This document shows positions 1,590-34,020 of a stretch of 64,000 bases of DNA, in pieces (within the stretch, counting starts at the first letter, position 1; every line of letters starts with the position of its first letter). The stretch covers positions 13,540,516 to 13,604,515 of the forward strand of contig CM046861.1 in assembly GCA_025617745.1 (NCBI GenBank). Direction: 5' to 3'. The translations under genes and the position numbers were made by a program. The DNA comes from Heliocidaris erythrogramma. Its lineage: Eukaryota; Echinodermata; Echinoidea; Camarodonta; Echinometridae. The notes under the pieces were generated by a model, which saw nothing but the letters and a program-made list of their open reading frames with translations, was not told the origin of the DNA and did no database searches.

Positions 1590-1661
1590 GTCTCCGTGGT
1601 CTAGTGGTTAAGGCATTGGCGTTCTAAGCCAACGACCCGGGTTCGATTCCCGGCGGAGACA
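1590..1661 (+). tRNA. tRNA-Arg-like gene, anticodon TCT (inverted copy)
   Basis: Same 72-nt sequence as the minus copy at 1046-1117, with a perfect acceptor stem and anticodon TCT, followed by ATTTTTTC. Conservation of all stems in both arms means either recent duplication or gene conversion between the arms. Whether it is charged and used cannot be told from sequence. Confidence 0.7.
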
Positions 1662-12510: not shown

Positions 12511-15500
12511 ATTTTTTTGATTTGATTTGATTTATTCACCAACAATAACATCATGTGTACAAGATTTGTCACACAGTAAATATTGTTACAGGATTGAAAC
12601 TTAAATGATAATAGCTGGTAAATGGGACCAGAAAATAGCACAAGTGCTAGTCGAGCCTGGCCCCTCTACAAAATTTACATAGTAGAAGATATTAATTCCA
12701 TTACAAACATAACAATTACAACCACATACATAGATAGCATGGTGTTACATGTACATGTACATGGATATAGAGAGTAAAACATTATACATCATTACTTAAA
12801 AGATGTTCTTTTAATGATTTCCTAAAACTACTTCTGGATGATTTCAGTTTAATATCAGTTGGTATTCTATTCCATAAATCACTTCCTAAAAAAGAAAGAG
12901 AAAATTGTCCTTGGGTAGTCCTTAATTTTGGTAAATGCACCTGTCGACCTGTTTTTTGTCTCGTTAAATAATTGTGCTGTATTGTATCACAATAGTCTAT
13001 TAAAGAGTGGGGTAAGTTGTTATTACCCAGGTCATACATGAAGGTTCCTACACATAAATAGTGCATATCAAACACATTGAGGATCTTTAATTCTCGAAAT
13101 AATGGGCGAGTATGAGCTCGCCAGTGACTAAATGTGATGGCACGTACTGCCATTTTTTGACTGCAAAGTATACAATTTAAGCTACTCTTGTATGTACTCC
13201 CCCATACCTCGATTCCATAGGTTAGATGTGGCTCTATAAAAGCCTTATATAATAAGACCAATGTATATTTGGGTACAACATGTCGCAGGCGGAATAAAAT
13301 TCCAACTCTTTTCCGTATACATGAATTAATAGCTCGGATATGATTGTGCCAAGTCAAATGTTTATCAATCGTTATACCTACAAAAGTTGCTTCATCAACC
13401 TCTTCAATTACTTCTCCACCTATTTCTAGTCTACCTGATAATGTGACTTTTCTCCTCCTGCTGCTAATTAACATAAATTTTGTCTTCAGAGAGTTGATAG
13501 TAAGCTTATTTGCAATGCACCATTCGTGTATTTTCTTTATATTGATATTTATTTCATTGGCATCAATCTCCTTTTGATTTGCTGGAAATGTGTGAAACAA
13601 GTTAGAATCGTCTGCAAATAGTCTGAAATTGAAAAAGTTAGAAACTGACGGTAAGTCATTGATATAAAGTAAAAACAGTGTTGGTCCTAAAACTGACCCC
13701 TGTGGAACACCGCAACTGATTTTCATTTTGCTGGAGATTATTTCTCCACATTGAACATATTGATACCTGCCTTCTAGATAGTCTTCAAACCATTTCAGCG
13801 GAAGACCCCGTATACCATAATGAGAGAGTTTATGTATCAAGACCTTATGATCTATAGTATCAAAAGCTTTTTTGAAGTCAATAAAAATCCCAAGTGTAGC
13901 TCTACCCTCATCAATTGATTTCAAAATAGTGTTAGACAAGTTTATCAATGATAGTTTTGTACTATATTTTTTTCTAAATCCATATTGATGATGGTAAAAG
14001 GTATTGTTTGATTCTAAAAATTGTATCAGCCGGCCATTTGTTATTTTTTCAAAGACTTTACTTAACACTGGTAAAACCGAAATTGGTCTGTAATTTCCAG
14101 GTTCCTCTTTTGGTCCCTTTTTGTGAATAGGTGAAACTTTTGCTATTTTCATTTCATCTGGCATCCTCCCACACTCTAAGGATAGATTAAAAATATATGT
14201 AAGGACACGTGCTATGTAGGCAGCACCATCTCTTAACAATCGTCCAGGTATATTGCCATAACCACAAGCCTTTTTGACATCTAGATTTAAGAGATGATTA
14301 AAAACCTCAGCCTCAGTAACAGGCTTCCAAAATAAAGAATTATCAGCTTGTACCCCTAAGTAAGGTATATGTGACATACTTCTATTTGGTAAGGTATCCG
14401 CTAAGTTCGGACCAATATTGACAAAGAAATTATTGAATTCATTTACAATATCATACATAGATGTAATGAGTGTATTTCTTCCATTGACCTTTTTGATAAG
14501 CCTGTCTATCTCAGCGACTTGCGACATTTTTTTCTTTCCGACTAATAATTCATTAATGATACTCCATGTCTTACTAGTATTCCACCGGTTTACATGTAAT
14601 AAATTGCTATAATATGTTCTCTTTGCATTCTTTAATACCGTAGTCAAAACATTTCTATATTTCTTAAATTTTTTCACGACATCTTCATCATGATTTGTCC
14701 GTAAGACTTTGGCATACAACTTTTGTTTCTTTCTTATTGATTTAATTATCCCTTTCGTAATCCATGGCTTCCTTTTGGTATCTTTCTTTTCCCCAATTCG
14801 TTTAGTTATCAGTGGTGCATGTTTATTACAGATATTTGAGAAAATTGTACAAAAAGTAGAGTATGCAACATTCACATCGTGGCAATAGAATACCTCCTCC
14901 CAGTTCGAGATAGAAAGGTCTTCTGTAAATTGTTCAATATTGTATTTCTTATAGCACCGATACGTAATATTTTTCGGATTCGAGCATTCCTTGGCTATGT
15001 CCTTGAAAATTACAAACACGGCAAAATGATCGGAGATGTCAGTTTGGATGACTCCTGAATGGCATTCAACCATATCAATGTTTGTATAAATGTGGTCTAA
15101 TAATGTAGATGATTCTTTGGTTACTCTTGTCGGCGATTTAATTAATTGTCCTAGTCCCACACATTGTAGAGATGAGGTGAAATCATCCACTATTTCTTCT
15201 ACACTTAACATATTCACATTAAAATCTCCTAGGAGTATACATTTATGTTTATCAATTTTGAGTTGTTCCAGTGTATCTAACAAACTGTCTCGGAACTCTT
15301 TAACATTTGTACTAGGTTTTCTATACAGTACAGCCACGATTATTGTAAGTGCATTAGTGATGTTAACTTGTAACCAAAGAGATTCTGCATGGGTAATATC
15401 GCAATTTAAGCGGGTGTACTTTAGGTCTGATTTGATATAAGCTCCAACCCCTCCTCCTCTCAAATCATTTTTCCGACAGTCTACTTCAAGAGTATAGCCT

Positions 15501-15760
15501 TGTAAACCTAAAACAGAAGTACATGTATTAGTTACATCCCAGACTTCAGATAAACCAATAATGTCAAATTTAGTATGGATACAATCTTCATACACCAGTT
15601 TAAGGGCTTCAAAATTTTTCATCAAGGAGCGTATATTTACATGAGTCAATTTAAAAGAACTGGATGTGTCAAAATTCAGAATATTATCAATATCATTCGG
15701 TAACAATTCATAAGACAATTTTGTATCAATCATTAATATTTATTAATATTTCTTATTGCC
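12511..15760 (-). mobile_element. Non-LTR retrotransposon (LINE), near full ORF2 with 3' UTR
   Basis: A 983-codon endonuclease-RT frame is followed by about 270 bases of 3' UTR ending in a direct-repeat tail (AAATCAAATCAAATC in the element's sense). No LTRs. Upstream of the ORF, 15734-15950 holds no recognisable ORF1, so the copy may be 5' truncated. The tail and domain order fit the CR1/Jockey group. Confidence 0.9.
12782..15733 (-). CDS. LINE ORF2: APE-type endonuclease and reverse transcriptase, uninterrupted
   Basis: The protein nicks target DNA and primes cDNA synthesis from the nick (family knowledge). In order: an endonuclease with HVNIRSL near residue 31, GLSEVW near 60, LLGDFNVN near 168, LLDHIYTN near 212 and SDHFAVF near 234. 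Then a linker with KRKPWITKGI. Then an RT with NYRPISVLP near 546, FIDFKKAFDTIDH near 635, GVPQGSVLGP near 672 and the catalytic FADD near 706. A C-terminal region follows with LWNRIPTDIK near 960, a segment common to this group. All catalytic signatures are present with no stop or frameshift, unlike the two other LINEs in the window. It is therefore a young copy and possibly competent, although the start of the element is not defined. Confidence 0.93.
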   Translation of the reverse strand: MIDTKLSYELLPNDIDNILNFDTSSSFKLTHVNIRSLMKNFEALKLVYEDCIHTKFDIIGLSEVWDVTNTCTSVLGLQGYTLEVDCRKNDLRGGGVGAYIKSDLKYTRLNCDITHAESLWLQVNITNALTIIVAVLYRKPSTNVKEFRDSLLDTLEQLKIDKHKCILLGDFNVNMLSVEEIVDDFTSSLQCVGLGQLIKSPTRVTKESSTLLDHIYTNIDMVECHSGVIQTDISDHFAVFVIFKDIAKECSNPKNITYRCYKKYNIEQFTEDLSISNWEEVFYCHDVNVAYSTFCTIFSNICNKHAPLITKRIGEKKDTKRKPWITKGIIKSIRKKQKLYAKVLRTNHDEDVVKKFKKYRNVLTTVLKNAKRTYYSNLLHVNRWNTSKTWSIINELLVGKKKMSQVAEIDRLIKKVNGRNTLITSMYDIVNEFNNFFVNIGPNLADTLPNRSMSHIPYLGVQADNSLFWKPVTEAEVFNHLLNLDVKKACGYGNIPGRLLRDGAAYIARVLTYIFNLSLECGRMPDEMKIAKVSPIHKKGPKEEPGNYRPISVLPVLSKVFEKITNGRLIQFLESNNTFYHHQYGFRKKYSTKLSLINLSNTILKSIDEGRATLGIFIDFKKAFDTIDHKVLIHKLSHYGIRGLPLKWFEDYLEGRYQYVQCGEIISSKMKISCGVPQGSVLGPTLFLLYINDLPSVSNFFNFRLFADDSNLFHTFPANQKEIDANEININIKKIHEWCIANKLTINSLKTKFMLISSRRRKVTLSGRLEIGGEVIEEVDEATFVGITIDKHLTWHNHIRAINSCIRKRVGILFRLRHVVPKYTLVLLYKAFIEPHLTYGIEVWGSTYKSSLNCILCSQKMAVRAITFSHWRAHTRPLFRELKILNVFDMHYLCVGTFMYDLGNNNLPHSLIDYCDTIQHNYLTRQKTGRQVHLPKLRTTQGQFSLSFLGSDLWNRIPTDIKLKSSRSSFRKSLKEHLLSNDV

Positions 15761-16462
15761 TTATAAAAAGGCAAATGTGCTTTCATTCCATAAAATGCAG
15801 CTTGAACCGTCGGTAGTCTATGGTGTCCAGTCCTATTTCAAATAGGTCATCGGGAGAGACGATCTTTTTGAAGCTATCATCTTGCAACTTGCAAATAATG
15901 TTTCCATTCTGCGTTGATTGAATTCATTAAAGTTCTAAATGCTTGTTTCACTTGATAATGTGGTTTTAGGTTGATTTTTTTCCTTTTCAAGATTTGCCTG
16001 CTGAAATTGAAATGACTAGCCATGGAGTTATTTTTAGAGGAAAGATTCATGCATAATTCAGGTTGGCTTTCAGGTTCAGGTTCTGTTGTATTTCATATTA
16101 TTTATTTAAAATACATATTGTCAGTTTTGTTTCCAAGAAATAATAATAAGATGAATAATACAGAGCATTTTCAATCAAAATAAGTACATACAAATATATT
16201 ACATCACTTTGGATTACTTGTCGTTACTTGTAAATAATGACTAACAAAATCTGAAATGAGGGTATGAAGAAGCCTATAAGGTAAAAGCAAAGCTTGTTGG
16301 TTATAGGCCCCAGGGGTAATAGGCCTGCAATAGGAGTCTTATAAGGTTGAGAGAATGAACAAGAAAGAGTTGAAGAAAAGTGTAAATAAAACAAGTTAAT
16401 GTATTATTAAAATCTGCATCGAATGTGAATGAATAATCAGCGAATAATAATAATAATAATAA
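15761..16462. other. Spacer between LINE and tandem array
   Basis: AT-rich, ending in a (TAA)n tract (16445-16462) that forms the left flank of the array. No gene seen. Confidence 0.5.
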
Positions 16463-18278
16463 CTAGAATTTAATTCGTCATGAGGACGAATTAGGTGGTC
16501 TGTCCTTCAATTTGTACGATCATGATTGTAATCAGGATGATCATAATAATGGGGAAATACTAAACTGAAGATAGGATGTCAAGAATGCCATGAATGGAGG
16601 TCCTTCTTGAGGACGGGAATGTAGCAAAATGTGTAACGGTCATTGTAAAATGATTATGGTGATGATGATAATGGTGATTATGATGATTATAATGATATAT
16701 GATGGCGATGATATAATAGCGATGATGATCATGACGGTGATGATAATAATGATGATGATACAGGATACTTGGCAGATTAACCCCTTAGCTCTAATACAGG
16801 ACAGGAAATCACAATTTCCATAGGGTTGTACACAAAACTACTGCACACTACTTTCTAATAGACATAATACGGGAAAATAAGGCAGTTTATTACATGATTT
16901 GTGATTTTTTATATTATACTAGTCGAAGAGGATTGTAAAATGACAGGCAAAAAGAAGCAAAAAGAAGCAAAAAAAAAAAAAAAAAAAATCGGCCCCGGGG
17001 ATCGAACCAGGTACCTTGACCATGGTAGTCATGTGCTTTACCGATAGACCAGAATATTTCCCATAGAGATAACACGTAAACGAAAACGGGATTCTCAAAT
17101 CACATTTTGTACTGAAAAATTGGGCATGATCCCGACATCTGATCAAAAATTGGAGACCACATTTGTAAAAGCTTATAGTCTCAGCTACAACATATTAAAA
17201 TCTGGAAGAAAATAGACCAAAAATAACTGAGATACTGCTCAGAGAACGATGTCATGTAGATTCATGATTCGAAAAAAAAGTCATCTTCCATAGACATAAC
17301 ACGCAAATAGGGAAAATTCTGACATGGCGTCTTTAATTGAAAATTTCACTGTGATGACGTCATCAAAATGAAAAATGGTGGCAACTAATTTTGTAGGAAA
17401 TTGCCTCAGCTATGACATATCAAAATCTGGGCGAAAAAAGACCAATAATTACGAATCTAGAGCCAAATTTGCATAAATGTGATGACGTCAAAACATGAAA
17501 AATGGAAATTTGGATTTCTGGTGCCATTTTGATGACGTCATAATGTTTATAAGGGTCAAATGATACATGAAATCATATCTATGATTCATACCCTACCTGA
17601 TGATGACAAAAAATTGGGGGATTTATGGACTATTTAAAGAGCTAGAGTTAATTTTGTAGAGGCATGTTTTTGCATGTTTTTACGTTATTTTCGCCATAGA
17701 TGCGCGCACGGATTTTGAAGTTTGACGCGCCCGTACGACCTTATTATTGATTGAAATTGATTCCAAGTTGATGGAAATGATGAAGAAAAGTGTCAAGATT
17801 GCAAATCAATCGAAAAAACAGTGTTTTAACGTTAGTTACGACTTGCGCGCGCGTAAAACGCGCGCGCGGACACTTACGCTCGGACATTTTTGAAATGCTC
17901 AAAATGACCTGAAACGTGTGCAGACTTGATCCTACGTGATTTTGAGCATTTTTAAATTTTGACGCGCGCGTACGCGCACGTCCTGACCTCTAGATGACCT
18001 GTGAGGACATTGCTTGATGACTCGTCATTTGAAGTTTATGTGATGTGAATATAGTTTATTTTTGATGATCGATTATGAAGATATAATCGATCTTGTAAAT
18101 TTACAAAATGGCGTCTTGATGACGTCACGATGACCTGATGACCTCCAAAAGCTTAGATGACCATGTCCATGATTGACCTCATACATGACATGAAACTCGA
18201 TGATATTGACCTGGCCGATTTTGAGATTTGGTGGGAACAAAAATTTGCTATAAAAAGAAGAAATATTAAAAATAAAAA
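16463..18278 (-). repeat. Array unit 1 (1816 bp)
   Basis: Starts at the CTAG-hairpin end. Holds a GATGAT-rich stretch (16655-16760) and a tRNA-like segment (16990-17053, minus). Four TGACGTCA palindromes lie at 17355, 17483, 17533 and 18120. CG-alternating blocks lie near 17848-17875 and 17960-17985. Confidence 0.95.
16990..17053 (-). other. tRNA-like segment with oligo-T terminator (unit 1; repeated in units 2-4)
   Basis: In minus sense it reads TGGTCTATCGGTAAAGCAC ... CTGGTTCGATCCCCGGGGCC, giving an A-box-like and a perfect B-box-like promoter. It is followed directly by a run of 16 or more T, which would stop Pol III. The 5' acceptor strand does not pair with the 3' side, so it is not a functional tRNA. 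Equivalent segments are at about 18797-18862, 20602-20667 and 22458-22523. Confidence 0.75.
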
Positions 18279-20081
18279 CTAGAATTTAATTCGTCATGAG
18301 GACGAATTAGGTGGTCTGTCCTTCAATTTGTACGATCATGATTGTAATCAGGATGATCATAATAATGGGGAAATACTAAACTGAAGATAGGATGTCAAGA
18401 ATGCCATGAATGGAGGTCCTTCTTGAGGACGGGAATGTAGGAAAATGTGTAACGGTCATTGTAAAATGATTATGGTGATGATGATAATGGAGATTATGAT
18501 GATTATAATGATATATGATGGCGATGATATAATAGCGATGATGATCAGGACGGTGATGATAATAATGATGATGATACAGGATACTTGGCAGATTAACCCC
18601 TTAGCTCTAATACAGGACAGGAAATCACAATTTCCATAGGGTTGTACACAAAACTACTGCACACTACTTTCTAATAGACATAATACGGGAAAATAAGGCA
18701 GTTTATTACATGATTTGTGATTTTTTATGTTATACTAGTCGAAGAGGATTGTAAAATGACACGCAAAAAGAAGCAAAAAAAAAAAAAAAAAAAAATCGGC
18801 CCCGGGGATCGAACCAGGTACCTTGACCATGGTAGTCATGTGCTTTACCGATAGACCAGAATATTTCCCATAGAGATAACACGTAAACGAAAACGGGATT
18901 CTCAAATCACATTTTGTACTGAGAAATTGGGCATGATCCCGACATCTGATCAAAAATTGGAGACCACATTTGTAAAAGCTTATAGTCTCAGCTACAACAT
19001 ATTAAAATCTGGAAGAAAATAGACCAAAAATAACTGAAATACTGCTCAGAGAACGATGTCATGTAGATTCATGATTCGAAAAAAAGTCATCTTCCATAGA
19101 CATAACACGCAAATAGGGAAAATTCTGACATGGCGTTTTTAATTGAAAATTTCACTGTGATGACGTCATCAAAATGAAAAATGGTGGCAACTAATTTTGT
19201 AGGAAATTGCCTCAGCTATGACATATCAAAATCTGGGCGAAAAAAGACCAATAATTACGAATCTAGAGCCAAATTTGCATAAATGTGATGACGTCAAAAC
19301 ATGAAAAATGGAAATTTGGAATTCTGGTGCCATTTTGATGACGTCATAATGTTTATAAGGGTCAAATGATACATGAAATCATATCTATGATTCATACCCT
19401 ACCTGATGATGACAAAAAATTGGGGGATTTATGGACTATTTAAAGAGCTAGAGTTAATTTTGTAGAGGCATGTTTTTGCACGTTTTTACGTTATTTTCGC
19501 CATAGATGCGCGCACGGATTTTGAAGTTTGACGCGCCCGTACGACCTTATTATTGATTGAAATTGATTCCAAGTTGATGGAAATGATGAAGAAAAGTGTC
19601 AAGATTGCAAATCAATCGAAAAAACAGTGTTTTAAAGTTAGTTACGACTTGCGCGCGCGTAAAACGCGCGCGCGGACACTTACGCACGGACATTTTTGAA
19701 ATGCTCAAAATGACCTGAAACGTGTGCAGACTTGATCCTACGTGATTTTGAGCATTTTTAAATTTTGACGCGCGCGTACGCGCACGTGCTGACCTCTAGA
19801 TGACCTGTGAGGACATTGCTTGATGACTCGTCATTTGAAGTTTATGTGATGTGAATATAGTTTATTTTTGATGATCGATTATGAAGATATAATCGATCTT
19901 GTAAATTTACAAAATGGCGTCTTGATGACGTCACGATGACCTGATGACCTCCAAAAGCTTAGATGACCATGTCCATGATTGACCTCATACATGACATGAA
20001 ACTCGATGATATTGACCTGGCCGATTTTGAGATTTGGTGGGAACAAAAATTTGCTATAAAAAGAAGAAATATTAAAAATAA
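18279..20081 (-). repeat. Array unit 2 (1803 bp)
   Basis: Differs from unit 1 by scattered substitutions only. Same tRNA-like segment, CRE palindromes and CG blocks. Confidence 0.95.
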
Positions 20082-21937
20082 CTAGAATTTAATTCGTCAT
20101 GAGGACGAATTAGGTGGTCTGTCCTTCAATTTGTACGATCATGATTGTAATCAGGATGATCATAATAATGGGGAAATACTAAACTGAAGATAGGATGTCA
20201 AGAATGCCATGAATGGAGGTCCTTCTTGAGGACGGGAATGTAGCAAAATGTGTAACGGTCATTGTAAAATGATTATGGTGATGATGATAATGGTGATTAT
20301 GATGATTATAATGATATATGATGGCGATGATATAATAGCGATGATGATCATGACGGTGATGATAATAATGATGATGATGATACAGGATACTTGGCAGATT
20401 AACCCCTTAGCTCTAATACAGGACAGGAAATCACAATTTCCATAGGGTTGTACACAAAACTACTGCACACTACTTTCTAATAGACATAATACGGGAAAAT
20501 AAGGCAGTTTATTACATGATTTGTGATTTTTTATGTTATACTAGTCGAAGAGGATGGTAAAATGACAGGCAAAAAGAAGCAAAAAAAAAAAAAAAAAAAA
20601 TCGGCCCCGGGGATCGAACCAGGTACCTTGACCATGGTAGTCATGTGCTTTACCGATAGACCAGAATATTTCCCATAGAGATAACACGTAAACGAAAACG
20701 GGATTCTCAAATCACATTTTGTACTGAAAAATTGGGCATGATCCCGACATCTGATCAAAAATTGGAGACCACACTTGTAAAAGCTTATAGTCTCAGCTAC
20801 AACATATTAAAATCTGGAAGAAAATACACCAAAAATAACTGAGATACTGTTCAGAGAACGATGTCATGTAGATTCATGATTCGAAAAAAAGTCATCTTCC
20901 ATAGACATAACACGCAAATAGGAAAAATTCTGATATGGCGTCTTTAATTGAAAATTTCACTGTGATGACGTCATCAAAATGAAAAATAGTGGAGACTGAT
21001 TTTGTAGGAAATTGCCTCAGCTATGACATATCAAAATCTGGGCGAAAAAAGACCAATAATTACGAATCTAGAGCCAAATTTGCATAAATGTGATGACGTC
21101 AAAACATGAAAAATGGAAATTTGGATTTCTGGTGCCATTTTGATGACGTCATAATGTTTATAAGGGTCAAATGATACATGAAATCATATCTATGATTCAT
21201 ACCCTACCTGATGATGACAAAAAATCGGGGGATTTATGGACTATTTAAAGAGCTAGAGTTAATTTTGTAGAGGCATGTTTTTGCACGTTTTTACGTTATT
21301 TTCGCCATAGATGCGCGCACGGATTTTGAAGTTTGACGCGCCCGTACGACCTTATTATTGATTGAAATTGATTCCAAGTTGATGGAAATGATGAAGAAAA
21401 GTGTCAAGATTGCAAATCAATCGAAAAAACAGTGTTTTAACGTTATTTACGACTTGCGCGCGCGTAAAACGCGCGCGCGGACACTTACGCACGGACATTT
21501 TTGAAATGCTCAAAATGACCTGAAACGTGTGAAGACTTGATCCTACGTGATTTTGAGCATTTTTAAATTTTGACGCGCGCGTACGCGCACGTCCTGACCT
21601 CTAGATGACCTGTGAGGACATTGCTTGATGACTCGTCATTTGAAGTTTATATGATGTGAATATAGTTTATTTTTGATGATCGATTATGAAGATATACTCG
21701 ATCTTGTAAATTTACAAAATGGCGTCTTGATGACGTCACGATGACCTGATGACCTTCAAAAGCTTAGATGACCATGTCCATGATTGACCTCATACATGAC
21801 ATGAAACTCGATGATATTGACCTGGCCGATTTTGAGATTTGGTGGGAACAAGAATTTGCTATAAAAAGAAGAAATAATATTAAAGAAAATCTTGACAAAA
21901 TTAAAAGGAGGTCTGTCATAAATGACAGACCACCTAA
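20082..21937 (-). repeat. Array unit 3 (1856 bp)
   Basis: Close to units 1 and 2, with the full 5'-end hairpin block (minus sense) retained at 21890-21937. Units 1 and 2 lack this block. Confidence 0.95.
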
Positions 21938-23922
21938 CTAGAATTTAATTCGTCATGAGGACGAATTAGGTGGTCTGTCCTTCAATTTGTACGATCATGA
22001 TTGTAATCAGGATGATCATAATAATGGGGAAATACTAAACTGAAGATAGGATGTCAAGAATGCCATGAATGGAGGTCCTTCTTGAGGACGGGAATGTAGG
22101 AAAATGTGTAACGGTCATTGTAAAATGATTATGGTGATGATGATAATGGAGATTATGATGATTATAATGATATATGATGGCGATGATATAATAGCGATGA
22201 TGATCAGGACGGTGATGATAATAATGATGATGATACAGGATACTTGGCAGATTAACCCCTTAGCTCTAATACAGGACAGGAAATCACAATTTCCATAGGG
22301 TTGTACACAAAACTACTGCACACTACTTTCTAATAGACATAATACGGGAAAATAAGGCAGTTTATTACATGATTTGTGATTTTTTATGTTATACTAGTCG
22401 AAGAGGATTGTAAAATGACACGCAAAAAGAAGCAAAAAAAAAAAAAAAAAAAAAAATCGGCCCCGGGGATCGAACCAGGTACCTTGACCATGGTAGTCAT
22501 GTGCTTTACCGATAGACCAGAATATTTCCCATAGAGATAACACGTAAACGAAAACGGGATTCTCAAATCACATTTTGTACTGAGAAATTGGGCATGATCC
22601 CGACATCTGATCAAAAATTGGAGACCACACTTGTAAAAGCTTATAGTCTCAGCTACAACATATTAAAATCTGGAAGAAAATAGACCAAAAATAACTGAAA
22701 TACTGCTCAGAGAACGATGTCATGTAGATTCATGATTCGAAAAAAAGTCATCTTCCATAGACATAACACGCAAATAGGGAAAATTCTGACATGGCGTCTT
22801 TAATTGAAAATTTCACTGTGATGACGTCATCAAAATGAAAAATGGTGGCAACTAATTTTGTAGGAAATTGCCTCAGCTATGACATATCAAAATCTGGGCG
22901 AAAAAAGACCAATAATTACGAATCTAGAGCCAAATTTGCATAAATGTGATGACGTCAAAACATGAAAAATGGAAATTTGGAATTCTGGTGCCATTTTGAT
23001 GACGTCATAATGTTTATAAGGGTCAAATGATACATGAAATCATATCTATGATTCATACCCTACCTGATGATGACAAAAAATTGGGGGATTTATGGACTAT
23101 TTAAAGAGCTAGAGTTAATTTTGTAGAGGCATGTTTTTGCACGTTTTTACGTTATTTTCGCCATAGATGCGCGCACGGATTTTGAAGTTTGACGCGCCCG
23201 TACGACCTTATTATTGATCAAAATTGATTCCAAGTTGATGGAAATGATGAAGAAAAGTGTCAGGATTGGAAATCAATCGAAAAAACAGCGTTTTAACGTT
23301 ATTTACGACTTGCGCGCGCGTAAAGCACGCGCGCGGACGCTTACGCACGGACATTTTTGAAATGCTCAAAATGACCTGAAACGTGTGCAGACTTGATCCT
23401 ACGTGATTTTGAGCATTTTTAAATTTTGACGCGCGCGTACGCGCACGTGCTGACCTCTAGATGACCTGTGAGGACATTGCTTGATGACTCGTCATTTGAA
23501 GTTTATGTGATGTGAATATAGTTTATTTTTGATGATCGATTATGAAGATATAATCGATCTTGTAAATTTACAAAATGGCGTCTTGATGACGTCACGATGA
23601 CCTGATGACCTCCAAAAGCTTAGATGACCATGTCCATGATTGACCTCATACATGACATGAAACTCGATGATATTGACCTGGCCGATTTTGAGATTTGGTG
23701 GGAACAAAAATTTGCTATAAAAAGAAGAAATATTAAAAATAAAAATAAAGAAAATCTTGACAAAATTAAAAGGAGGTCTGTCATAAATGACAGACCACCT
23801 AAAAATAAAGAAAATCTTGACAAAATTAAAAGGAGGTCTGTCATAAATGACAGACCACCTAATAAAGAAAATCTTGACAAAATTAAAAGGAGGTCTGTCA
23901 TAAATGACAGACCACCTAATAA
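21938..23922 (-). repeat. Array unit 4 with triplicated end block
   Basis: A full unit whose right end carries three copies of a 58-bp end block (see 23741-23922). Confidence 0.95.
23741..23922. repeat. 58-bp end block, three tandem copies with hairpins
   Basis: Each copy is AT-rich (AAAGAAAATCTTGAC) followed by an inverted repeat with stem GGTCTGTCAT/ATGACAGACC and a 2-base loop. Single copies stand at the right ends of units 3 and 5, and variants at the ends of units 7 and 8. The block is the repeated terminus of the unit. Confidence 0.92.
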
Positions 23923-25018
23923 CTGAGATACTGCTCAGAGAACGATGTCATGTAGATTCATGATTCGAAAAAAAGTCATCTTCCATAGACATAACACGCA
24001 AATAGGGAAAATTCTGACATGGCGTCTTTAATTGAAAATTTCACTGTGATGACGTCATCAAAATGAAAAATGGTGGCAACTAATTTTGTAGGAAATTGCC
24101 TCAGCTATGACATATCAAAATCTGGGCGAAAAAAGACCAATAATTACGAATCTAGAGCCAAATTTGCATAAATGTGATGACGTCAAAACATGAAAAATAG
24201 AAATTTGGATTTCTGGTGCCATTTTGATGACGTCATAATGTTTATAAGGGTCAAATGATACATGAAATCATATCTATGATTCATACCCTACCTGATGATG
24301 ACAAAAAATTGGGGGATTTATGGACTATTTAAAGAGCTAGAGTTAATTTTGTAGAGGCATGTTTTTGCACGTTTTTACGTTATTTTCGCCATAGATGCGC
24401 GCACGGATTTTGAAGTTTGACGCGCCCGTACGACCTTATTATTGATTGAAATTGATTCCAAGTTGATGGAAATGATGAAGAAAAGTGTCAAAATTGCAAA
24501 TCAATCGAAAAAACAGCGTTTTAACGTTATTTACGACTTGCGCGCGCGTAAAACGCACGCGCGGACGGTTACGCACGGACATTTTTGAAATGCTCAAAAT
24601 TACCTGAAACGTGTGCAGACTTGATCCTACGTGATTTTGAGCATTTTTAAATTTTGACGCGCGCGTACGCGCACGTCCTGACCTCTAGATGACCTGTGAG
24701 GACATTGCTTGATGACCCGTCATGTGAAGTTTATGTGATGTGAATATAGTTGATTTTTGATGATCGATTATGAAGATATACTCGATCTTGTAAATTTACA
24801 AAATGGCGTCTTGATGACGTCACGATGACCTGATGACCTTCAAAAGCTTAGATGACCATGTCCATGATTGACCTCATACATGACATGAAACTCGATGATA
24901 TTGACCTGGCCGATTTTGAGATTTGGTGGGAACAAGAATTTGCTATAAAAAGAAGAAATATTAAAGAAAATCTTGACAAAATTAAAAGGAGGTCTGTCAT
25001 AAATGACAGACCACCTAA
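23923..25018 (-). repeat. Array unit 5, truncated
   Basis: Begins inside the unit, at the position equivalent to 17226 (ATAACTGAGATACTGCTCAG). It lacks the CTAG-hairpin end, the GAT stretch and the tRNA-like segment. The remaining 1.1 kb runs normally to the end block. Confidence 0.92.
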
Positions 25019-26818
25019 CTAGAATTTAATTCGTCATGAGGACGAATTAGGTGGTCTGTCTTTCAATTTGTATGATCATGATTGTAATCAGGATGATCAT
25101 AATAATGGGGAAATGATATAATGATGATGATGGTGATGGTGATGGTGATGATAATGGTGATGACCATGACTGCAATGACAGTGACCTTAACCATGCCAAA
25201 TATGAAAGAGAAATCACATTTCGTTATGAAGATACGACCATAAGTTGATTTTTACAAAATGTCGCCTGGATGACGTCACGATAATCTGATGACCTTGAAA
25301 AAGATGCGTGAACTTGACCTTATTAGGACTGATGACTGACGAAAATTTGAAGATAATTGACTAAGCCAATTTTGAGAAATTTCCATAGGGTTGTACACAA
25401 ACTACTGCACACTACTTTCCAATAGACAAAACACGCAAAATAAGGCAGTTTAGTACATGGTTTGTGATTGTATATGATATAATAGTCGAAGAAGATGGTA
25501 AAATGAAAGGCAAAAAGAAGCAAAAAAAAAATTTTTTTAATGGACCCACCGGGGATCGAACCTGGGTCACCGGAATGAGAGGCAAGTGCTATAACCAATA
25601 TACCAAAATATTTCCCATAGAGATAACACGTAGTCGAAAAACGGGATTCTCAAATCCCATTTTGTAGTGAAAAATTGGGCATGATCCCGACATCTGATCA
25701 AAAATTGGAGACCACACTTGTAAAAGCTTATAGTCTCAGCTATAACATACTAAAATCTGGAAGAAAATAGACCAAAAACAACTGAGATACAGCTCAGAGA
25801 ACAATGTCATGTAGATTCATGATTCGAAAAAAAATCATCTTCCATAGACATAACACGCAAATAGGGAAAATTCTGACATGGCATCTTTCATTGAAAATTT
25901 CACTGTGATGACGTCATTAAAATGTAAAATGGTGGTGACTGATTTTGTAGGAAATTGCCTCAGCTACAACATATGAAAATCTGGGCGAAAAACGACCAAT
26001 AATTACGAATCTAGAGCCAAATTTGCATAAATGTTATGACGTCAAAACATGAAAAATGGAAATTTTGACTTCTGGCGCCATTTTGATGACGTCATAATGT
26101 TTATAAGGGTCAAATGATACATGAAATGAAATTGATGATTCATACCCTACCTGATGATGAAAAAAAATTGGGGGGTTTATGGACTATTTAAAGAGCTAGA
26201 GTTAATTTTGTAGAGGCATGTTTTTGCACGTTTTTACGTTATTTTCACCATAGACGCGCACACGGATTTTGAACTTTGACGCGCCCGTACGACCTTATTA
26301 TTGATTGAAATTGATTCCAAGTTGATGGAAATGATGAAGAAAAGTGTCAGGATTGCAAATCAATCGAAAAAACAGCCTTTTAACGTTATTTAGGACTTGC
26401 GCGCGCGTAAAACGCGGGCGAGGACGCTTACGCACGGACATTTTTGAAATGCTCAAAATGACCTGAAACATGTGCAGACTTGATCCTACATGATTTTGAG
26501 CATTTTTAAATTTTGACGCGCGCGTACGCGCACGTGCTGACCTCTAGATGACCTGTGAGGACATGACTTGATGACCCGTCATGTGAAGTTTATGTGGTGT
26601 GAATATAGTCGATTTTTGATGATCGATTATGAAGATATAATCGATCTTGTAAATTTACAAAATGGCGTCTTGATGACGTCACGATGACCTGATGACCTCC
26701 AAAAGCTTAGTTGACCATGTCCATGATTGACCTCATACATGACATGAAACTTGATGATATTGACCTGGCCGATTTTGAGATTTGGTGGGAACAACATTTT
26801 GTAATAAAAAGAAATAAA
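25019..26818 (-). repeat. Array unit 6, divergent subfamily
   Basis: The CTAG-hairpin end is intact, but the first 500 bases are rearranged and the tRNA-like segment is of a second type (see 25540-25610). Identity to units 1-4 is clearly lower. Confidence 0.9.
25540..25610 (-). other. tRNA-Glu-like segment (unit 6; also units 7 and 8)
   Basis: In minus sense it reads TGGTATATTGGTTATAGCAC, then GCCTCTCATTCC with a possible CTC anticodon, then CAGGTTCGATCCCCGGTGGG. The A- and B-box-like parts are better tRNA matches than in units 1-4, but the 5' acceptor strand is missing. A T-run follows. Counterparts lie at about 27706-27776 and 30098-30170. Confidence 0.7.
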
Positions 26819-29054
26819 CTAGAATTTAATTCGTCATGAGGACGAATTAGGTGGTCTGTCTTTCACTTTGTATGATCATGATTGTAATCAGGATGATCAT
26901 AATAATGGGGAAATACTAAACTGAAGATAGGAAGTCAAGAATGCCACGCATGGGGATGCTTCTTGAGGACAGGAATGTAGAAAAATGTGTGAAACGGCCA
27001 TTGGAAGATGTGATGACGTTGATGATAGTCATCATCATGAATATCATGACAGTGATGATAATGATGTTGATGATAATCATGATGATGATCATATCATGAC
27101 AGTGATGATGATAATGATCTTGATGATAATCATCATCATGAATATCATCATGACAGTGATGATGATAATGATGTTGATGATAATCATCATCATGAATATC
27201 ATCATGACAGTGATGATGATAATGATGTTGATGATAATCATGATGATGATATAATGATGATGATGGTGATGGTGATGGTGATGATAATGGTGATGACCAT
27301 GACTGCAATGACAGTGACCTTAACCATGCCAAATATGAAACAGAAATGACATTTCATTATGAAGATACGACCATAAGTTGATTTGTAGAAAATGGCGCCT
27401 AGATAACGTCACAGTAATCTGATGACCTTGAAAAAGATGCGGGATCTTGACCTTATTAGGACTAATGACTAACGATAATTGACTAAGTCGATTTTGAGAA
27501 ATTGTGATATCAAATAGGACTAATGATATTGCAGGATATAGCTGTAATACACGTTAGGGAATCAGATTTTCCAGATTTCCTTTGTAATCGACATAACACG
27601 CAAAATAAGGCAGTTTATTACGTGGTTTGTGATTGCTTATGTTATAATAGTCGAACAAGATGGTAAAATGAATGGCAAAAAGAAGCAAAAAAAAATTTTT
27701 TTTTAATGGACCCACTGGGGATCGAACCTGGGTCACCGGAGTGAGAGGCAAGTGCTTTGACCAATATACCAAAATATTTCCCATAGAGATAACACGTAAA
27801 CGAAAAACGGGATTCTCAAATCCCATTTTGTCGTGAAAAATTGGGCATGATCCCGACATCTGATCAAAAATTGGAGACCACACTTATAAAAGCTTATAGT
27901 CTCAGCTATAACATACTAAAATCTGGAAGAAAATAGACCAAAGACAACTGAGATACAGCTCAGAGAACAATGTCATGTAGATTCATGATTCGAAAAAAAA
28001 TCATCTTCCATAGACATAACACGCAAATAGGGAAAATTCTGACATGGCATCTTTAATTGAAAATTTCACTGTGATGACATCATCCAAATGAAAAATAGTG
28101 GTCACTGATCTTGTAGAGAATTGTTTCAGCTATAACATATCAAAATCTGGGCGATGAACGACCAATAATTACGAATCTTGAGCCAAATTTGCATAAATGT
28201 AATGAAGTCAAAACATGAAAAATGGAAATTTTGACTTCTGGCGCCATTTTGATGACGTCATAATGTTTATAAGGATCAAATGATACATGAAATCATATCT
28301 ATGATTCATACCCTACCTGATGATGAAAAAAAATTGGGGGGTTTATGGACTATTTAAAGAGCTAGAATTAATTTTGTAGAGGCATATTTTTGCACGTTTT
28401 TACGTTATTTTCGCCATAGACGCGCGCACGGATTTTGAACTTTGACGCGCCCGTACGACCTTATTATTGATTGAAATTGATTCCAAGTGGATGGAAATGA
28501 TGAAGAAAAGTGTCAGGATTGCAAATCAATCGAAAAAACAGCGTTTTAACGTTATTTACGACTTGCGCGCGCCTAAAACGCGCGCGCGGACGCTTACGCA
28601 CGGACATTTTTGAAATGCTCAAAATGACCTGAAACGTGTGCAGACTTGATCCTACGTGATTTTGAGCATTTTTAAATTTTGACGCGCGCGTACGCGCACG
28701 TCCTGACCTCTAGATGACCTGTGAGGACATGACTTGATGACCCGTCATCTGAAGTTTATGTGATGTGAATATAGTTGATTTGTGATGATCGATTATGAAG
28801 ATATAATCGATCTTGTAAATTTAGAAAATGGCGTCTTGATGACGTCACGATGACCTGATGACCTTCAAAAGCTTAGTTGACCATGTCCATGATTGACCTC
28901 ATACATGACATGAAACTCGATGATATTGACCTGGCCGATTTTGAGATTTGGTAGGAACAAAAATTTGTCTTAAAAATAAATAAATAATAAAGAAGAAAAT
29001 TCTGACAAAATTAAAAGGTGATCTGTCGATACCGACAGACCACCTAATAAAGAA
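26819..29054 (-). repeat. Array unit 7 (2236 bp) with GAT-rich expansion
   Basis: Same order as unit 6, lengthened by a GATGATAATCATCATCATGA-type microsatellite at 27003-27300. Confidence 0.9.
27003..27300. repeat. GAT/ATC-rich minisatellite in unit 7
   Basis: Tandem variants of a period near 66 bp, CATGACAGTGATGATGATAA, alternating GAT and ATC trinucleotides. It yields meaningless long open frames on both strands. Confidence 0.9.
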
Positions 29055-31511
29055 ACTAGAATTTAATTCGTCATGAGGACGAATTAGGTGGTCTGTCTTT
29101 CAATTGGTACGATCATCATTGTAATCAGGATGATCATAATAATGGGGAAATACTAAACTGAAGATAGGAAGTCAAGAATGCCACGCATGGAGATGCTTCT
29201 TGAGGACAGGAATGTAGAAAATGTGTGGAACGGTCATTGGAAAATGTGATAATATTTGTGCAAGATAACAATCATGATAATGGTGATGATTATCATGATG
29301 AAGGTGATATAATGATGGTGATGACAATAATAATAGCAATGATGATCATGGCGGTGATGATATTATATCATCATTATCATCATGAATATCATCATGACAG
29401 TGCTGATGATAATGATGTTGATAATTATCATCATCATCATCATCATGAATATCATCATGACAGTGATGATAATGAAGTTGATGATAATCATCAGCATCAT
29501 CATGAATATCATCACAGTGATGATGATAATGATGTTGAGGATAATCATCATCATGAATATCGTGACAGTGATGATGATAATGATGTTGAAGATAATCATG
29601 ATGAGGATCATTATATCATCATGACAGTGCTGATGATAATGATGTTGATAATTATCATCATCATCATCATCATGAATATCATCATGACAGTGATGATAAT
29701 GAAGTTGATGATAATCATCAGCATCATCATGAATATCATGACAGTGATGATGATAATGATGTTGAGGATAATCATCATCATGAATATCGTGACAGTGATG
29801 ATGATAATGATGTTGATGATAATCATGATGATGATCATGATTATCATCAACATCATTATCATTTTGAGAAATTGTGATATCAAATAAGACTAATGATATT
29901 GCAGGATAGCTTTAATACACTTCAGGGAATCAGATTTTCCATAGGGTTACACATAAACTACTGCACACTACTTTCTAATAGACATAACATGCAAAATAAG
30001 ACATTTTATTACTTTGTTTGTGATTGCTTATGTTATAATAGTCGAATAAGATGGTAAAATGAAAGGCAAAAAGAAGCAAAAAAAAAAAAAAAATTTAATG
30101 GACCCACCGGGGATCGAACCTGGGTCACCAGAATGAGAGGCAAGTGCTTTGACCAATATACCAAAACATTTCCCATAGAGATAACACGCAAACGAAAAAC
30201 GGGATTCTGAAATTCCATTTTGTAGTTCAAAATTGGGCATGATCCCTACATCTGATCAAAAATTGGAGACCACATTTGTAAAAGCTTATAGTCTCAGCTA
30301 TAACATACTAAAATCTGGAAGAAAATAGACCAAAAACAACTGAGATACAGCTCAGAGAACAATGTCATGTAGATTCATGATTCGAAAAAAAATCATCTTC
30401 CATAGACATAACACGCAAATAGGGAAAATTCTGACATGGCATCTTTAATTGAACATTTCACTGTGATGACGTCATCAAAATGAAAAACCGTGATGATTGA
30501 TCTTGTAGAGAATTGTCTCAGCTATGACATAGCAAAATCTGGGCGAAAAACGACTAATAATTACGAATCTAGAGCAAAATTTGCATAAATGTGACGACGT
30601 CAAAACATGAAAATTGGAAATTTTGACTTCTGGCGCCATTTTGATGACGTCATCATGTTTATAAGGGTCAAATGATACATGAAATGAAATCTATGATTCA
30701 TGCCCTACGTGATGATGACAAAAAAAATGGGGGTTTGTGGACTATTTAAAGAGCTAGAGTTAATTTTGTAGAGGCATGTTTTTGCACGTTTTGACGTTAT
30801 TTTCGCCATAGACGCGCGCACGGATTTTGAACTTTGACGCGCCCGTACGACCTTATTATTGATTGAAATTGATTCCAGGTTGATGGAAATGATGAAGAAA
30901 AGTGTCAGGATTGCAAATCAATCGAAAAATCAGCGATTTAACGTTATTTACGACTTGTACGCGCGTAAAACGCGCGCGCGGACGCTTACGTACGGATATT
31001 TTTGAAATGCTCAAAATGACCTGAAACGTGTGCAGACTTGATCCTATGTGATTTTGAGCATTTTTAAATTTTGACGCGCGCGTACGCGCACGTCCTGACC
31101 TCTAGATGACCTGTGAGGACATGACTTGATGACCCGTCATGTGAAGTTTATGTGATGTGAATATAGTTGATTTTTGATGATCGATTATGAAGATATAACC
31201 GATCTTGTAAATTTACAAAATGGCGTCTTGATGACGTCACGATGACCTGATGACCTTCAAAAGCTTAGATGACCATGTCCATGATTGACCTCATACATGA
31301 CATGAAACTCGATGATATTGACCTGGCCGATTTTGAGATTTGGTGGGTACAAAAATTTGTTATAAAAAGAAGAAATAAAGAAAAATAAAAATAAAGAAGA
31401 AAATTCTGACAAAATTAAAAGGTGATCTGTCGATACCGACAGACCACCTAATAAAGAAGAAAAATCTTGACAAAATTAAAAGGAGGTCTGTCATAAATGA
31501 CAGACCACCTA
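29055..31511 (-). repeat. Array unit 8 (about 2.46 kb), right end of array
   Basis: Divergent subfamily with a larger GAT/ATC expansion (29240-29870) and two end blocks at 31390-31511, one a variant with GTCGATACCGACAGACC. The array stops in TAATAATACC. Confidence 0.9.
29240..29870. repeat. GAT/ATC-rich minisatellite in unit 8
   Basis: The block at about 29400-29610 is repeated at 29625-29840 as a higher-order duplication. It is hairpin-prone because GATGAT and ATCATC blocks alternate. Confidence 0.9.
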
Positions 31512-32165
31512 ATAATACCACTGTTCTTGTATAGCGCATATCACATTATATGCAAATACTTTAATGCAAATCCATATAAAGTATGGATTTATGCACGGAA
31601 AAGCATAGTAATTGATATGAAATTGATATTGTATGATGCTATAATGTACACACTATACCCATGCGCAACGGCAAAGTCGAAAGTCATGTATAACGAACCT
31701 TTCTTCGTAATATTTATGTGGTTGCTCGCAACATCTATCAGGTACGGTATGTTTTAATTAAATTTAATCTCTTCAGCGAAAAAAAAATCGGTATGATATG
31801 CTTAGGCGTATACAGTTTTCCGCCAAAGCGTAAATGATGGCATGCACAAAAATAATAAAAGAGTCTGAAATGTAAATAGGAGGGATTTGAACATATAAGT
31901 TAGTATATGCTCATTTCTCCTGTCGTGTATCGTTTCCCAGTTGTGAATTGTGTATATCTGAATTTTGTATGCGAGAGTCACGATTGATATGCAAAATTAA
32001 ACGTCCAGTACGGTTTGGGAGTTTTGGGGTAATCTTTCAGTTAAATATTTACAGGCCAAGTCATATAGGCCTACAATATCTCCATCGTCGGATTAGGGCA
32101 GAACAACCAATTTTAATGTAGATTCATTAAAGGTGCTTCTTAATCTCCTGAGAAAGCTTACCATT
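31512..32165. other. Unannotated spacer right of the array
   Basis: AT-rich. An 86-codon open frame from 31497 begins inside the array's end hairpin and matches nothing. No gene called. Confidence 0.4.
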
Positions 32166-32169
32166 TGTC

Positions 32170-32330
32170 CCAGTGGCGGATTTAGGGGAGGGGGACATCC
32201 GGCCCGTGTCTCCCCCCCCCCTTTCGAAGAAAAATATGCATTGTGCCCCGCTATAGAACGGACTTTTTTTAAAAACTGGACCCCATTCCCCCCCCCCCCA
32301 CTGAGCGACTTTTCGAAAGCTGGCGATACC
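32170..32330 (+). repeat. Dispersed GTGGCGGAT-type element
   Basis: CAGTGGCGGATTTAGGGG ... CATCCGGCCCGTGTC followed by a C-run and an AAATATGCATTGTG region. An inverted relative lies at 48890-49015. No coding function. Confidence 0.6.
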
Positions 32331-32519
32331 AAAAAAGTTGACAAAACACTATTCGTTTTGATGAGTCTCGCTCTGAAAAGAAAACTGCCTTGTACATTAA
32401 AATAAACCTCTCGTTTCCTATTTCTTTTTAACATTCATATGATAAATTTAACCGGCAATACTGAGTTATAGGATCAAACCAGGAACCTGAGAATACTACG
32501 ATCTTTTCTGTGTTCCTTT

Positions 32520-32635
32520 GTAATATGACCTTTCCCCCATTTTGTGTGTGTGTGTGGGGGGGGGGGGGGGGGTTGTCAGTGAGAGATATTGATAGGCATG
32601 ATAAGAAATTGTATGAATAATAGTGGATGACTCAA

Positions 32636-32671
<36 letters not shown>

Positions 32672-32860
32672 GAGAGACAGGGGGAGAAAGATAGTGTGTG
32701 TTTGTGTCTGTGTGAGAGAGAGAGAGAGAGAGGGGGGGGGGGAGAGTTCAAAAGAGTGAGAGTGACAATCAGCTCGTCATATATCATGTATATTATAATA
32801 TGCTTGTACACCATTTTATGATATAGGTAAAGGGAACAACATATAAAGTCAGGGAATTTT
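32520..32860. repeat. GA/GT microsatellite segment, duplicated at 34193-34415
   Basis: GATGACTCAAA, (GA)n, AAAGATAGTGTGTGTTTGTG, (GA)n and a G-run occur in the same order in both loci, with different repeat counts. Confidence 0.88.
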
Positions 32861-32879
32861 AATAATACAAAATACGGCA

Positions 32880-33105
32880 AGTTTAGTACTGTAGCCTATG
32901 GGGAATTCAGCGTTCCGTGCAATATCCTCTCATATTGCACGCGCAAATCAAGCGGACAAAAATATGCGTTTTTAATGCGCCGCTAAAATGCCTTATATGG
33001 GTAATAATTATATAATATTGACTGGCTTGAGGGGGATATCATAATATATTGCCCGCAACAGAATTATATTGCCCCGAATCGAAGACGAGGGCAATATGGT
33101 TCTTT
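32880..33105. repeat. Dispersed repeat, inverted copy of 9589-9835
   Basis: Shares GAATTCAGCGTTCCGTGCAA, AATATGCGTTTTTAATGCGC and GAGGGCAATATGGTTCTTTT with the earlier locus in opposite orientation. Part of the same repeat (GGGCAATATATTCTGATATA) restarts at 33557 in the other orientation, so the TTAA element lies in the centre of a palindrome. Confidence 0.85.
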
Positions 33106-33108
33106 TAA

Positions 33109-33553
33109 AGACCTCAGCCTGACCGAATTTTGAAATATACCCTTTATTCATCCACGGGGAGCTATATATTTTCTGAACAAATTGAAACCAACTTCATGAG
33201 ATTCCGTTTCCTGTGGAATGAGTAACAGCGTCCCGAATGTTGAGCCCCGGTGGTTTTTCTGACGAGGGCCCCGTCTCTGAGGAACGCTACTTTGCGGGGG
33301 GTGAAAATTTGATGACGACATATCGTGTAGACGCACTCGGAGCTGTATACATGACATGTCGTCACACGTCTAGCGACCCCCTGCAGTTTCCTCTGTTGTT
33401 ACGCCATAGGGAAGGGGCGGACCAAAAAAAATTATCTTTTTTATTTTTTATGGATAAACGGAGACGAAAATTTATGAATACCCAGGGTAATTATATTCTT
33501 TGTTTACTAAGCATTACGTCAATATATGGTTGTTTTGGGTCAGGCTGAGGTCT
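33109..33553. mobile_element. 445-bp TIR element with TTAA target duplication
   Basis: TIRs AGACCTCAGCCTGACC (33109-33124) and GGTCAGGCTGAGGTCT (33538-33553) are perfect inverts of 16 bp. Both sides are flanked by TTAA (33105-33108 and 33554-33557). TTAA target use is typical of piggyBac and Kolobok superfamilies. No transposase, so a MITE; superfamily not decided. Confidence 0.85.
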
Positions 33554-33584
33554 TTAAGGGCAATATATTCTGATATACCCTTCA

Positions 33585-34020
33585 ACCCACCCACCACCTT
33601 CACCAACAACCCCTCCAGCACCACCAACTCCGCCAATACCACCACAACTTCCACCACCTCCATCACCACCACTACTACCACCACCTCCACTACCCATACC
33701 ATATCCACAACCAATTACAATCACCACCACAACTACCACCATCTGCACTACCCATACCATATCCACAACCAATTACAATCACCACCACTACTACCACCAC
33801 CTCCATGTACTACCCATACCATATCCACAACCAACAATCACCACCACTACTACCACCACCTCCACTACCCATACCATATCTACAACCAACAATCACCACC
33901 ACTACTACCACCATCTCCACTACCCATACCATATCCACAACCAACAATCACCACCACTACTACCACCATCTCCACTACCCATACCATATCCACAACCAAT
34001 AATCACCACATTATAATCAC
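33585..34020. repeat. CCACCA minisatellite, period about 50-65 bp
   Basis: Six or more copies of CACCACTACTACCACC (with variants) followed by CCACTACCCATACCATATCC and ACAACCAACAATCA. The open frames here (Thr/Pro/His-rich) are artefacts of the repeat. Confidence 0.92.

What the first reader, a model, noticed from the sequence alone, without database searches (positions are those of the whole stretch)
16463..31511. Fifteen kilobases of head-to-tail Helitron-like units
Seen: on the minus strand each unit ends in a 12-mer GACAGACCACCT, an 8-bp-stem hairpin, AAATT and CTAG|T. The other end has the inverse 12-mer AGGTGGTCTGTC. Known: Helitrons end in a hairpin plus CTRR with insertion before T, and Helentron/Helitron2 types have subterminal inverted repeats. 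Inference: this is a non-autonomous rolling-circle family that has formed a satellite by concatemeric replication. A satellite whose monomer keeps transposon termini at every boundary links rolling-circle transposition to satellite birth.
Basis: partly seen in the sequence, partly recalled or inferred. Interest (0 to 1): 0.8.

Follow-up and report, generated by a model that had tools for sequence, protein, structure and literature searches.

The report
Jumping elements nested inside each other
A 15-kb stretch that looks like a tandem repeat is a pile-up of one short, gene-less rolling-circle transposon family whose copies inserted one after another, mostly into the T-rich strip just inside each other's 5' end, so that the order of insertion can be read from the sequence like nested brackets.

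Summary
The sequence signs are real; the proposed mechanism is not supported. On the minus strand, 31512-16463 holds 8 five-prime ends (TTAGGTGGTCTGTC plus a palindrome) and 7 three-prime ends (GACAGACCACCT, hairpin, AAATTCTAG|TT): the ends of a non-autonomous Helentron (HINE); the 12-mer occurs 3,618 + 3,578 times in the genome. The units are not a concatemer. With 5' ends as "(" and 3' ends as ")" the array reads (()())(((()())). Cutting out inner elements rebuilds interrupted ones: two 5' stubs stop at nt 57 and 60, their 3' parts resume at nt 58 and 61, last in first out, and the rejoined leaders equal those of intact copies, one of them on contig C1. So the array grew by repeated self-insertion, mostly into the T-rich leader; one host's 3' part is missing. 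Other loci show similar nests (14 bracket pairs, 12 agree in subfamily, by eye). A larger array on C1 carries tandem duplications of 5.9- and 7.8-kb blocks (95.8-98.1%), so a nest can become satellite-like. Nested and multi-terminus Helitrons are known; here self-insertion, left open against rolling-circle copying in Fusarium/Metarhizium, is resolved base by base. New member of a known kind; interest moderate.

The parts
31452..31512 (-). F1: 5' stub (61 nt) of host element A; ends ...CTTCTTTA
   Evidence: 5' end TTAGGTGGTCTGTC + palindrome, then another 5' end
29056..31451 (-). U1: complete element (2,396 bp, long microsatellite) inserted in the leader of A
29048..29055 (-). TTTCTTTA: 8-nt piece of A's leader stranded between U1 and U2 (inferred)
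26819..29047 (-). U2: complete element (2,229 bp) inserted in the leader of A
25019..26818 (-). U3: 3' remainder of A (1,800 nt); F1 + 8 nt + U3 = 1,869 bp
23920..25018 (-). U4: 5' 1,099 nt of a further element, interrupted in its body at CAGTTA|TT; its 3' part (about 0.76 kb) is not in the window
23863..23919 (-). F5: 5' stub (57 nt) of element E
   Evidence: identical to nt 1-57 of U7
23803..23862 (-). F6: 5' stub (60 nt) of element G
   Evidence: identical to nt 1-60 of U7
21938..23802 (-). U7: complete element, 1,865 bp
20082..21937 (-). U8: complete element, 1,856 bp, directly abutting U7
18279..20081 (-). U6': 3' remainder of G; resumes at nt 61; F6 + U6' = 1,863 bp
16463..18278 (-). U5': 3' remainder of E; resumes at nt 58; F5 + U5' = 1,873 bp
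16443..16462 (-). 3' flank (TTA)n; the 5' flank before 31512 ends GTATTA, so the whole nest sits in a short ATT repeat

Best explanation
A family of non-autonomous Helentrons (HINEs, about 1.86 kb in the younger copies, no coding frame) built this array by repeated insertion into itself. Shown by sequence: an element runs TTAGGTGGTCTGTC...CTAG and mostly sits between an A and TT; no target duplication is needed if the first TT is the element's own end (the reverse complement of the 3' subterminal repeat also reads TTAGGTGGTCTGTC). Shown: the leader just inside the 5' palindrome is T-rich, and new copies interrupted it at nt 57 and 60 of two elements. Inferred: the Rep joins a rolling-circle copy to a T-rich strand, so that the strand carrying the Ts fixes orientation and every nested copy lies head to tail. 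Each insertion splits its host into a short 5' stub and a long 3' remainder, which gives stacks of 5' ends upstream and 5'-truncated units downstream in reverse order. Inferred: U4's 3' part was lost by exchange between homologous 3' halves, or was never there because a composite moved from U4's 5' end to an inner 3' end. Inferred: nests then offer homology for unequal exchange, as multi-unit duplications in another array suggest.
For: Bracket string ()((()) and step-by-step removal that restores elements of 1,869, 1,863 and 1,873 bp beside intact ones of 1,865 and 1,856 bp. F6/U6' and F5/U5' join with offset 0; the swapped pairings are off by +3 and -3; there are 26 possible [AT]|TT sites in nt 31-101. 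The rejoined leader equals that of U7 and of an intact copy on contig C1 (L028) over 102 nt. Four of the five insertions that clearly lie inside a host element fall in nt 50-80, which holds 16 of 411 TT sites on both strands (post hoc P 1.1e-5; 7.7e-5 if only same-strand sites count; the two abutting junctions were left out). Sites are TTA|TT in 37 of 47 non-abutting 5' ends. Other loci with balanced nests: L021 () and L032 ().
Against: 8 five-prime against 7 three-prime ends: U4 is never closed. The C1 array has 21 five-prime and 32 three-prime ends, which nesting alone does not give. L028) and L031 (are unbalanced, L025 and L029_30 each have a 5' end that is not closed. In the last four-deep stack of the C1 array 2 of 3 bracket pairs join different subfamilies. 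U6' and U5', older by nesting, carry fewer private substitutions than U7 and U8, and the copies are mosaics. For A (F1/U3) there is no intact copy with the same leader, so that join is only plausible.
Confidence: 0.88

Rival explanations
1. Rolling-circle concatemer: termination was missed, several laps of one element were copied and the multimer integrated (first reader; PMC4067079 gives bypassed termination for Helitron clusters).
For: Head-to-tail order, exact 3' ends at all 7 unit ends, two abutting CTAG|TTAGG junctions here and 93 + 69 in the genome.
Against: Units of different subfamilies and microsatellite lengths stand side by side (86.5-99.3% identity), junctions differ, 5' stubs are stacked, and stubs and truncated units complement each other exactly.
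Confidence: 0.04
2. Composite transposition: elements with several 5' ends (stubs F1, F5, F6 in front of a full copy) moved as single units, as proposed for Fusarium and maize, and the 5'-truncated units are unrelated insertions.
For: Stacks of two to four 5' ends occur at several loci; in the C1 end stack two pairs disagree in subfamily; L031 has a 5' part followed by a full element and then flank, with the host's 3' part absent.
Against: In the window the truncated units resume exactly where the stubs stop, in nested order. It may still hold for some other stacks and for U4.
Confidence: 0.05
3. Tandem duplication by unequal exchange made most of the units in the window.
For: U7 and U6' share 8 substitutions absent from U8 and U5' in the order U7-U8-U6'-U5' (read by eye), which resembles a two-unit duplication; the C1 array plainly has duplicated 5.88- and 7.77-kb blocks at 95.8-98.1%.
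Against: The junctions before U6' and U5' differ from each other by 3 nt, differ from those before U7 and U8, and match the stubs F6 and F5. At most of these 8 sites the state of U8 and U5' is the one seen in U1-U3, so it need not be shared by descent of a block.
Confidence: 0.03

Closest known systems
HINE / DINE-1, non-autonomous Helentrons (PMC4067079; passages and section 15 seen)
   Same: Subterminal inverted repeats 2-4 nt from the 5' end, palindromic 5' repeat, 3' palindrome, microsatellite, T-rich TT target, no target-site change, clusters reported.
   Different: Sequence family not matched to a named one here; the clusters are ascribed there to bypassed termination, whereas this one is a nest.
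FoHeli, Helitron2-type elements of Fusarium (PMC5148889; passages seen)
   Same: Asymmetric terminal inverted repeats; copies with short repeated 5' termini explained by self-insertion; a tandem trio in Metarhizium read as either insertion into the 5' end twice or rolling-circle copying.
   Different: Here the remainders are present in the right order and the joins can be checked to the base, which decides between those two readings for this locus.
Nested and multi-terminus helitrons of maize (PMC3288121; passages seen)
   Same: Helitrons inserted into helitrons, giving multiple termini.
   Different: Maize case is a hypothesised path for single elements with mutated inner 3' ends; here the inner CTAG ends are intact and the nest is several layers deep.
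Helentron-linked satellites: oyster Cg_HINE (PMC7492417; passages seen) and centromeric tandem Helitrons of plants (Xiong et al. 2016, not read; known from passages of PMC12628747 and PMC5148889)
   Same: Rolling-circle elements linked to tandem DNA; T-rich TT targets in the oyster.
   Different: Oyster repeats are short monomers inside one element; the plant arrays are described as truncated units with many 5' ends and often a single 3' end, while here 3' ends are kept and 5' ends are split.

Membership tests
HINE (non-autonomous Helentron) | Subterminal inverted repeats about 2-4 nt from the 5' end and 38-60 nt from the 3' end (PMC4067079) | tested here: met
   AGGTGGTCTGTC starts 2 nt inside the 5' end; GACAGACCACCT starts 42 nt from the 3' end
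HINE (non-autonomous Helentron) | Palindromic 5' repeat and a 3' palindrome near the 3' end | tested here: met
   DNA folds: 5' z -7.58 and -6.39, 3' z -3.70
HINE (non-autonomous Helentron) | Insertion in T-rich DNA, flanked by Ts, without target-site change | tested here: met
   63 of 64 three-prime ends before TT, 41 A and 6 T before 47 five-prime ends; restored leaders are exact if TT belongs to the element. A 2-bp TT duplication would look the same except for the inverted-repeat argument
HINE (non-autonomous Helentron) | No own proteins; microsatellite present | tested here: met
   Only four stop-to-stop frames of 120 aa or more start in the array, in microsatellites or stacked ends; ATG/ATC repeats
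HINE (non-autonomous Helentron) | An autonomous Helentron with the same ends in the genome | tested here: inconclusive
   103 Helitron_like_N matches, Helentron-type RGS motif in 8 of 12 fetched, one Rep ORF downstream of a HINE-like 5' end but 3' end not found
Canonical Helitron (Helitron1) | 5' TC end and 3' CTRR after a hairpin | tested here: not met
   3' CTAG and hairpin are present but the 5' end is TTAGG with inverted repeats
Satellite DNA | Many near-identical monomers joined at one constant boundary | tested here: not met
   Window: several junction types, 86.5-99.3% identity. Multi-unit tandem blocks do occur in the C1 array
Rolling-circle concatemer | Successive laps of one template: equal units, whole 5' and 3' ends at each joint | tested here: not met
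   2 of 6 internal joints have whole ends abutting; units differ by up to 13.5%

The most novel reading that the evidence does not exclude
The T-rich leader just inside the 5' palindrome acts as a built-in landing pad: a Helentron family that aims at its own 5' ends and builds oriented nests whose insertion order is written in the sequence. Unequal exchange then turns nests into higher-order satellite arrays, so self-targeting is a route from rolling-circle transposon to satellite, with autonomous copies (Rep in antisense to the ends) sitting among the nests.
Probability: 0.3. Interest if true: 0.65.

Novelty: new member of a known kind. Interest (0 to 1): 0.42.

Why it matters
Tandem Helitron clusters are commonly put down to missed termination during rolling-circle copying. 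Here the alternative, repeated self-insertion, can be tested base by base, and in this window it wins. A family with thousands of ends in a 26-contig genome offers many such nests in which insertion order, target choice and the later step towards satellite arrays can be read directly.

Tried and rejected
Copies elsewhere in the window: a complete young unit found no match outside the array except microsatellite matches near 47.0-47.2 kb. Exact 18-mer of the 3' end in the viral and prokaryotic collections: 0 matches. RNA genes inside the unit: whole-window ARAGORN and Rfam runs gave only four tRNAs, all outside the array; a permissive Rfam scan of 20082-27800 gave 24 matches, all below their gathering scores and mostly in the microsatellite, rejected. 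Autonomous partner: no HINE end above 38 bits and no unit similarity at 1e-10 in the twelve Rep loci L035-L046 (about 3.6 kb each) or in L047/L048; no 3' end in the 25 kb below the 5' end at C1:14329086. Rep matches lie near HINE junctions more than chance: of the 69 matches on contigs C1-C12 that I entered (of 103), 13 have a junction within 40 kb (random mean 0.99, maximum 7 in 2000 shuffles over approximate contig lengths), and 12 of these 13 are antisense to it, 1 is sense; only the first 100 of 162 junctions were used and several matches share a locus, so this is a lead. Dating the nest by private substitutions failed. A genome-wide count of 3' ends could not be had (tool busy at each try). 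The P value for the leader hotspot is post hoc.
Full report
Observation. But the two kinds of end are not paired at each boundary. There are 8 five-prime ends (12-mer starts 31510, 31449, 29045, 25016, 23917, 23860, 23800, 21935) and 7 three-prime ends (29056, 26819, 25019, 21938, 20082, 18279, 16463). Three units (U3, U6', U5') have no 5' end, three short 5' stubs (F1, F5, F6) have no 3' end of their own, and one unit (U4) stops in mid-body.

Anatomy of one element. TT + AGGTGGTCTGTC + a short loop + the complementary arm (a palindrome), then a T-rich leader, a body, an ATG/ATC microsatellite, the inverted copy GACAGACCACCT, a 9-bp hairpin, then AAATTCTAG. The only stop-to-stop frames of at least 120 aa that start in the array are four, in the microsatellites or across the stacked ends. 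The reverse complement of the 3' repeat reads TTAGGTGGTCTGTC, so the leading TT is best counted as part of the element.

Nesting. Written as brackets the array is ()((()). Cutting out innermost elements again and again gives restored sites: A = F1 + TTTCTTTA + U3 (1,869 bp) after removal of U1 and U2; G = F6 + U6' (1,863 bp) after removal of U7 and U8; E = F5 + U5' (1,873 bp) after removal of G; intact U7 and U8 are 1,865 and 1,856 bp. Two break and resume points can be checked against an intact leader and are exact: F6 ends at nt 60 and U6' starts at nt 61; F5 ends at 57 and U5' starts at 58; the swapped pairings are off by 3. The rejoined leader is that of U7 and of an intact copy on contig C1 (L028), which is identical to U7 over 102 nt. 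With 26 possible [AT]|TT sites in nt 31-101, two exact matches in the right order are unlikely by accident. For A the join is plausible but no intact copy with that leader was at hand. The outermost flanks both run in an ATT repeat...GTATTA before the 5' end and TTATTATT... after the 3' end.

Target. Of five insertions that clearly lie inside a host element, four are in nt 50-80 (U1 and U2 in A, G in E, U7/U8 in G) and one is at nt 1,099 of U4; nt 50-80 holds 16 of 411 TT sites (post hoc P 1.1e-5). The two abutting joints (U3|U4, U7|U8) cannot be assigned to a host and were left out.

What does not fit. U4 is never closed, so about 0.76 kb is missing. Exchange between homologous 3' halves, composite transposition or an assembly collapse would each do; I cannot choose. 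The substitutions among U4, U7, U8, U6' and U5' form a mosaic, and U6' and U5', older by nesting, have fewer private changes than U7 and U8, so ages could not be used as a check.

The rest of the genome. The window lies on contig C9 of a 1.064-Gb, 26-contig assembly with 3,618 + 3,578 exact 12-mers (backward control 21 and 39). No tool named the host; kringle and SRCR domains and non-LTR retrotransposon frames suggest an animal (general knowledge). The abutting junction occurs 93 + 69 times (control 0). I examined 19 other loci, chosen from the first part of contig C1: one 70-kb stretch, one 15-kb cluster and 17 shorter pieces. Ten are plain solitary copies, two are () (L021, L032), L017 and L020 show one end only, L025 is )((), L028 ), L031 (the 15-kb cluster ((())((and the C1 stretch has 21 five-prime and 32 three-prime ends (weak reverse-strand matches of 42-45 bits to the palindrome were dropped). 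Of 56 five-prime ends, window included, 9 abut a 3' end; of the other 47, 41 follow A and 6 follow T, 37 of them TTA; 63 of 64 three-prime ends precede TT (one 5' end, in L032, has a changed start and was left out; duplicated blocks inflate the counts).

Subfamily check, by eye. In the 29 intact leaders, the 7 with ATTTCGTC (z) head one kind of body and the 22 with TTTTGTC or similar head another, without exception. Among 14 bracket pairs (window 3, L021 1, L032 1, C1 stretch 3 + 3, 15-kb cluster 2, L025 1) 12 agree and 2 disagree; both disagreements are in the last four-deep stack of the C1 stretch, which therefore looks more like an element that moved with several 5' ends. Since most loci are rich in one type, agreement is weak evidence.

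From nest to satellite. In the C1 stretch the block 28121-34002 (coordinates from C1:655001) recurs three more times at 95.8-96.4%, and the 7.77-kb block recurs at 98.1%, with the same junctions repeated. So there multi-unit blocks were duplicated in tandem. In the window nothing in the junctions requires such a duplication.

Autonomous partner. The genome holds 103 Helitron_like_N matches with open frames up to 4,199 aa; 8 of the 12 loci fetched show the RGS motif that PMC4067079 gives as a mark of Helentrons. Rep matches lie near HINE junctions more often than random and mostly in antisense. At C1:14.31-14.33 Mb a z-type 5' end with about 1.6 kb of HINE similarity runs, without another HINE end, towards two long frames in antisense (1,778 aa, which holds the Rep match, and 1,339 aa); the 3' end was not found within 25 kb. 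This is a lead, not proof.

Literature. Helentron features and the lack of target change are in PMC4067079 (passages and one section), which ascribes tandem clusters to bypassed termination. PMC5148889 reports repeated 5' termini and leaves open insertion into the 5' end against rolling-circle copying for three tandem copies (passages). PMC3288121 derives multi-terminus helitrons from nested ones (passages). Double insertion as a seed of satellites is discussed in PMC12628747 and PMC9659126 (passages). Seven answered paper searches listed no paper whose title or opening of the abstract describes a Helentron array decoded as last-in-first-out nests; the library lacks most subscription journals, and I did not read papers whole.

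Verdict. A real, well-preserved feature: a HINE nest. The transposon kind is known and nested Helitrons are known; the concatemer and satellite readings are not supported for this window. What is worth keeping is the exact record of self-insertion at the leader and the visible next stage in a larger array.

Noticed in passing
C1:679500-716233 of the same genome (L011-L015): Multi-unit blocks of 5.88 and 7.77 kb of the same transposon family repeated in tandem at 95.8-98.1% identity: a transposon nest turning into a higher-order array.
   Followed up: partly
L031 (C1:13195500-13200500): An element inserted into the poly-T tract of another, whose 3' part is absent; parallels the missing 3' part of U4.
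   Followed up: no
window 20650-20600 and equivalent places in other units, minus strand: A stretch with a tRNA B-box-like GGTTCGATCCCCGG followed by a long T run; by eye only, no tool called a tRNA there.
   Followed up: partly
window 12782-15739 (-): Open 985-aa frame of a non-LTR retrotransposon (endonuclease and reverse transcriptase) just beside the array; broken relatives at 41345-44432 and 61897-62694.
   Followed up: partly
window 1046-1117 (-) and 1590-1661 (+); 56754-56825 (-) and 58405-58476 (+): Two inverted pairs of tRNA genes, Arg(TCT) and Thr(TGT), each pair divergent and close together.
   Followed up: no
window 49831-50277 and 51505-51867 (+): Two very similar kringle-domain exons about 1.7 kb apart, and an SRCR domain at 60531-60929.
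   Followed up: partly
window 55731-56145 and 33662-34009: A 26-bp minisatellite (16 copies, 96% matches) and a 55-bp one (6.1 copies).
   Followed up: no
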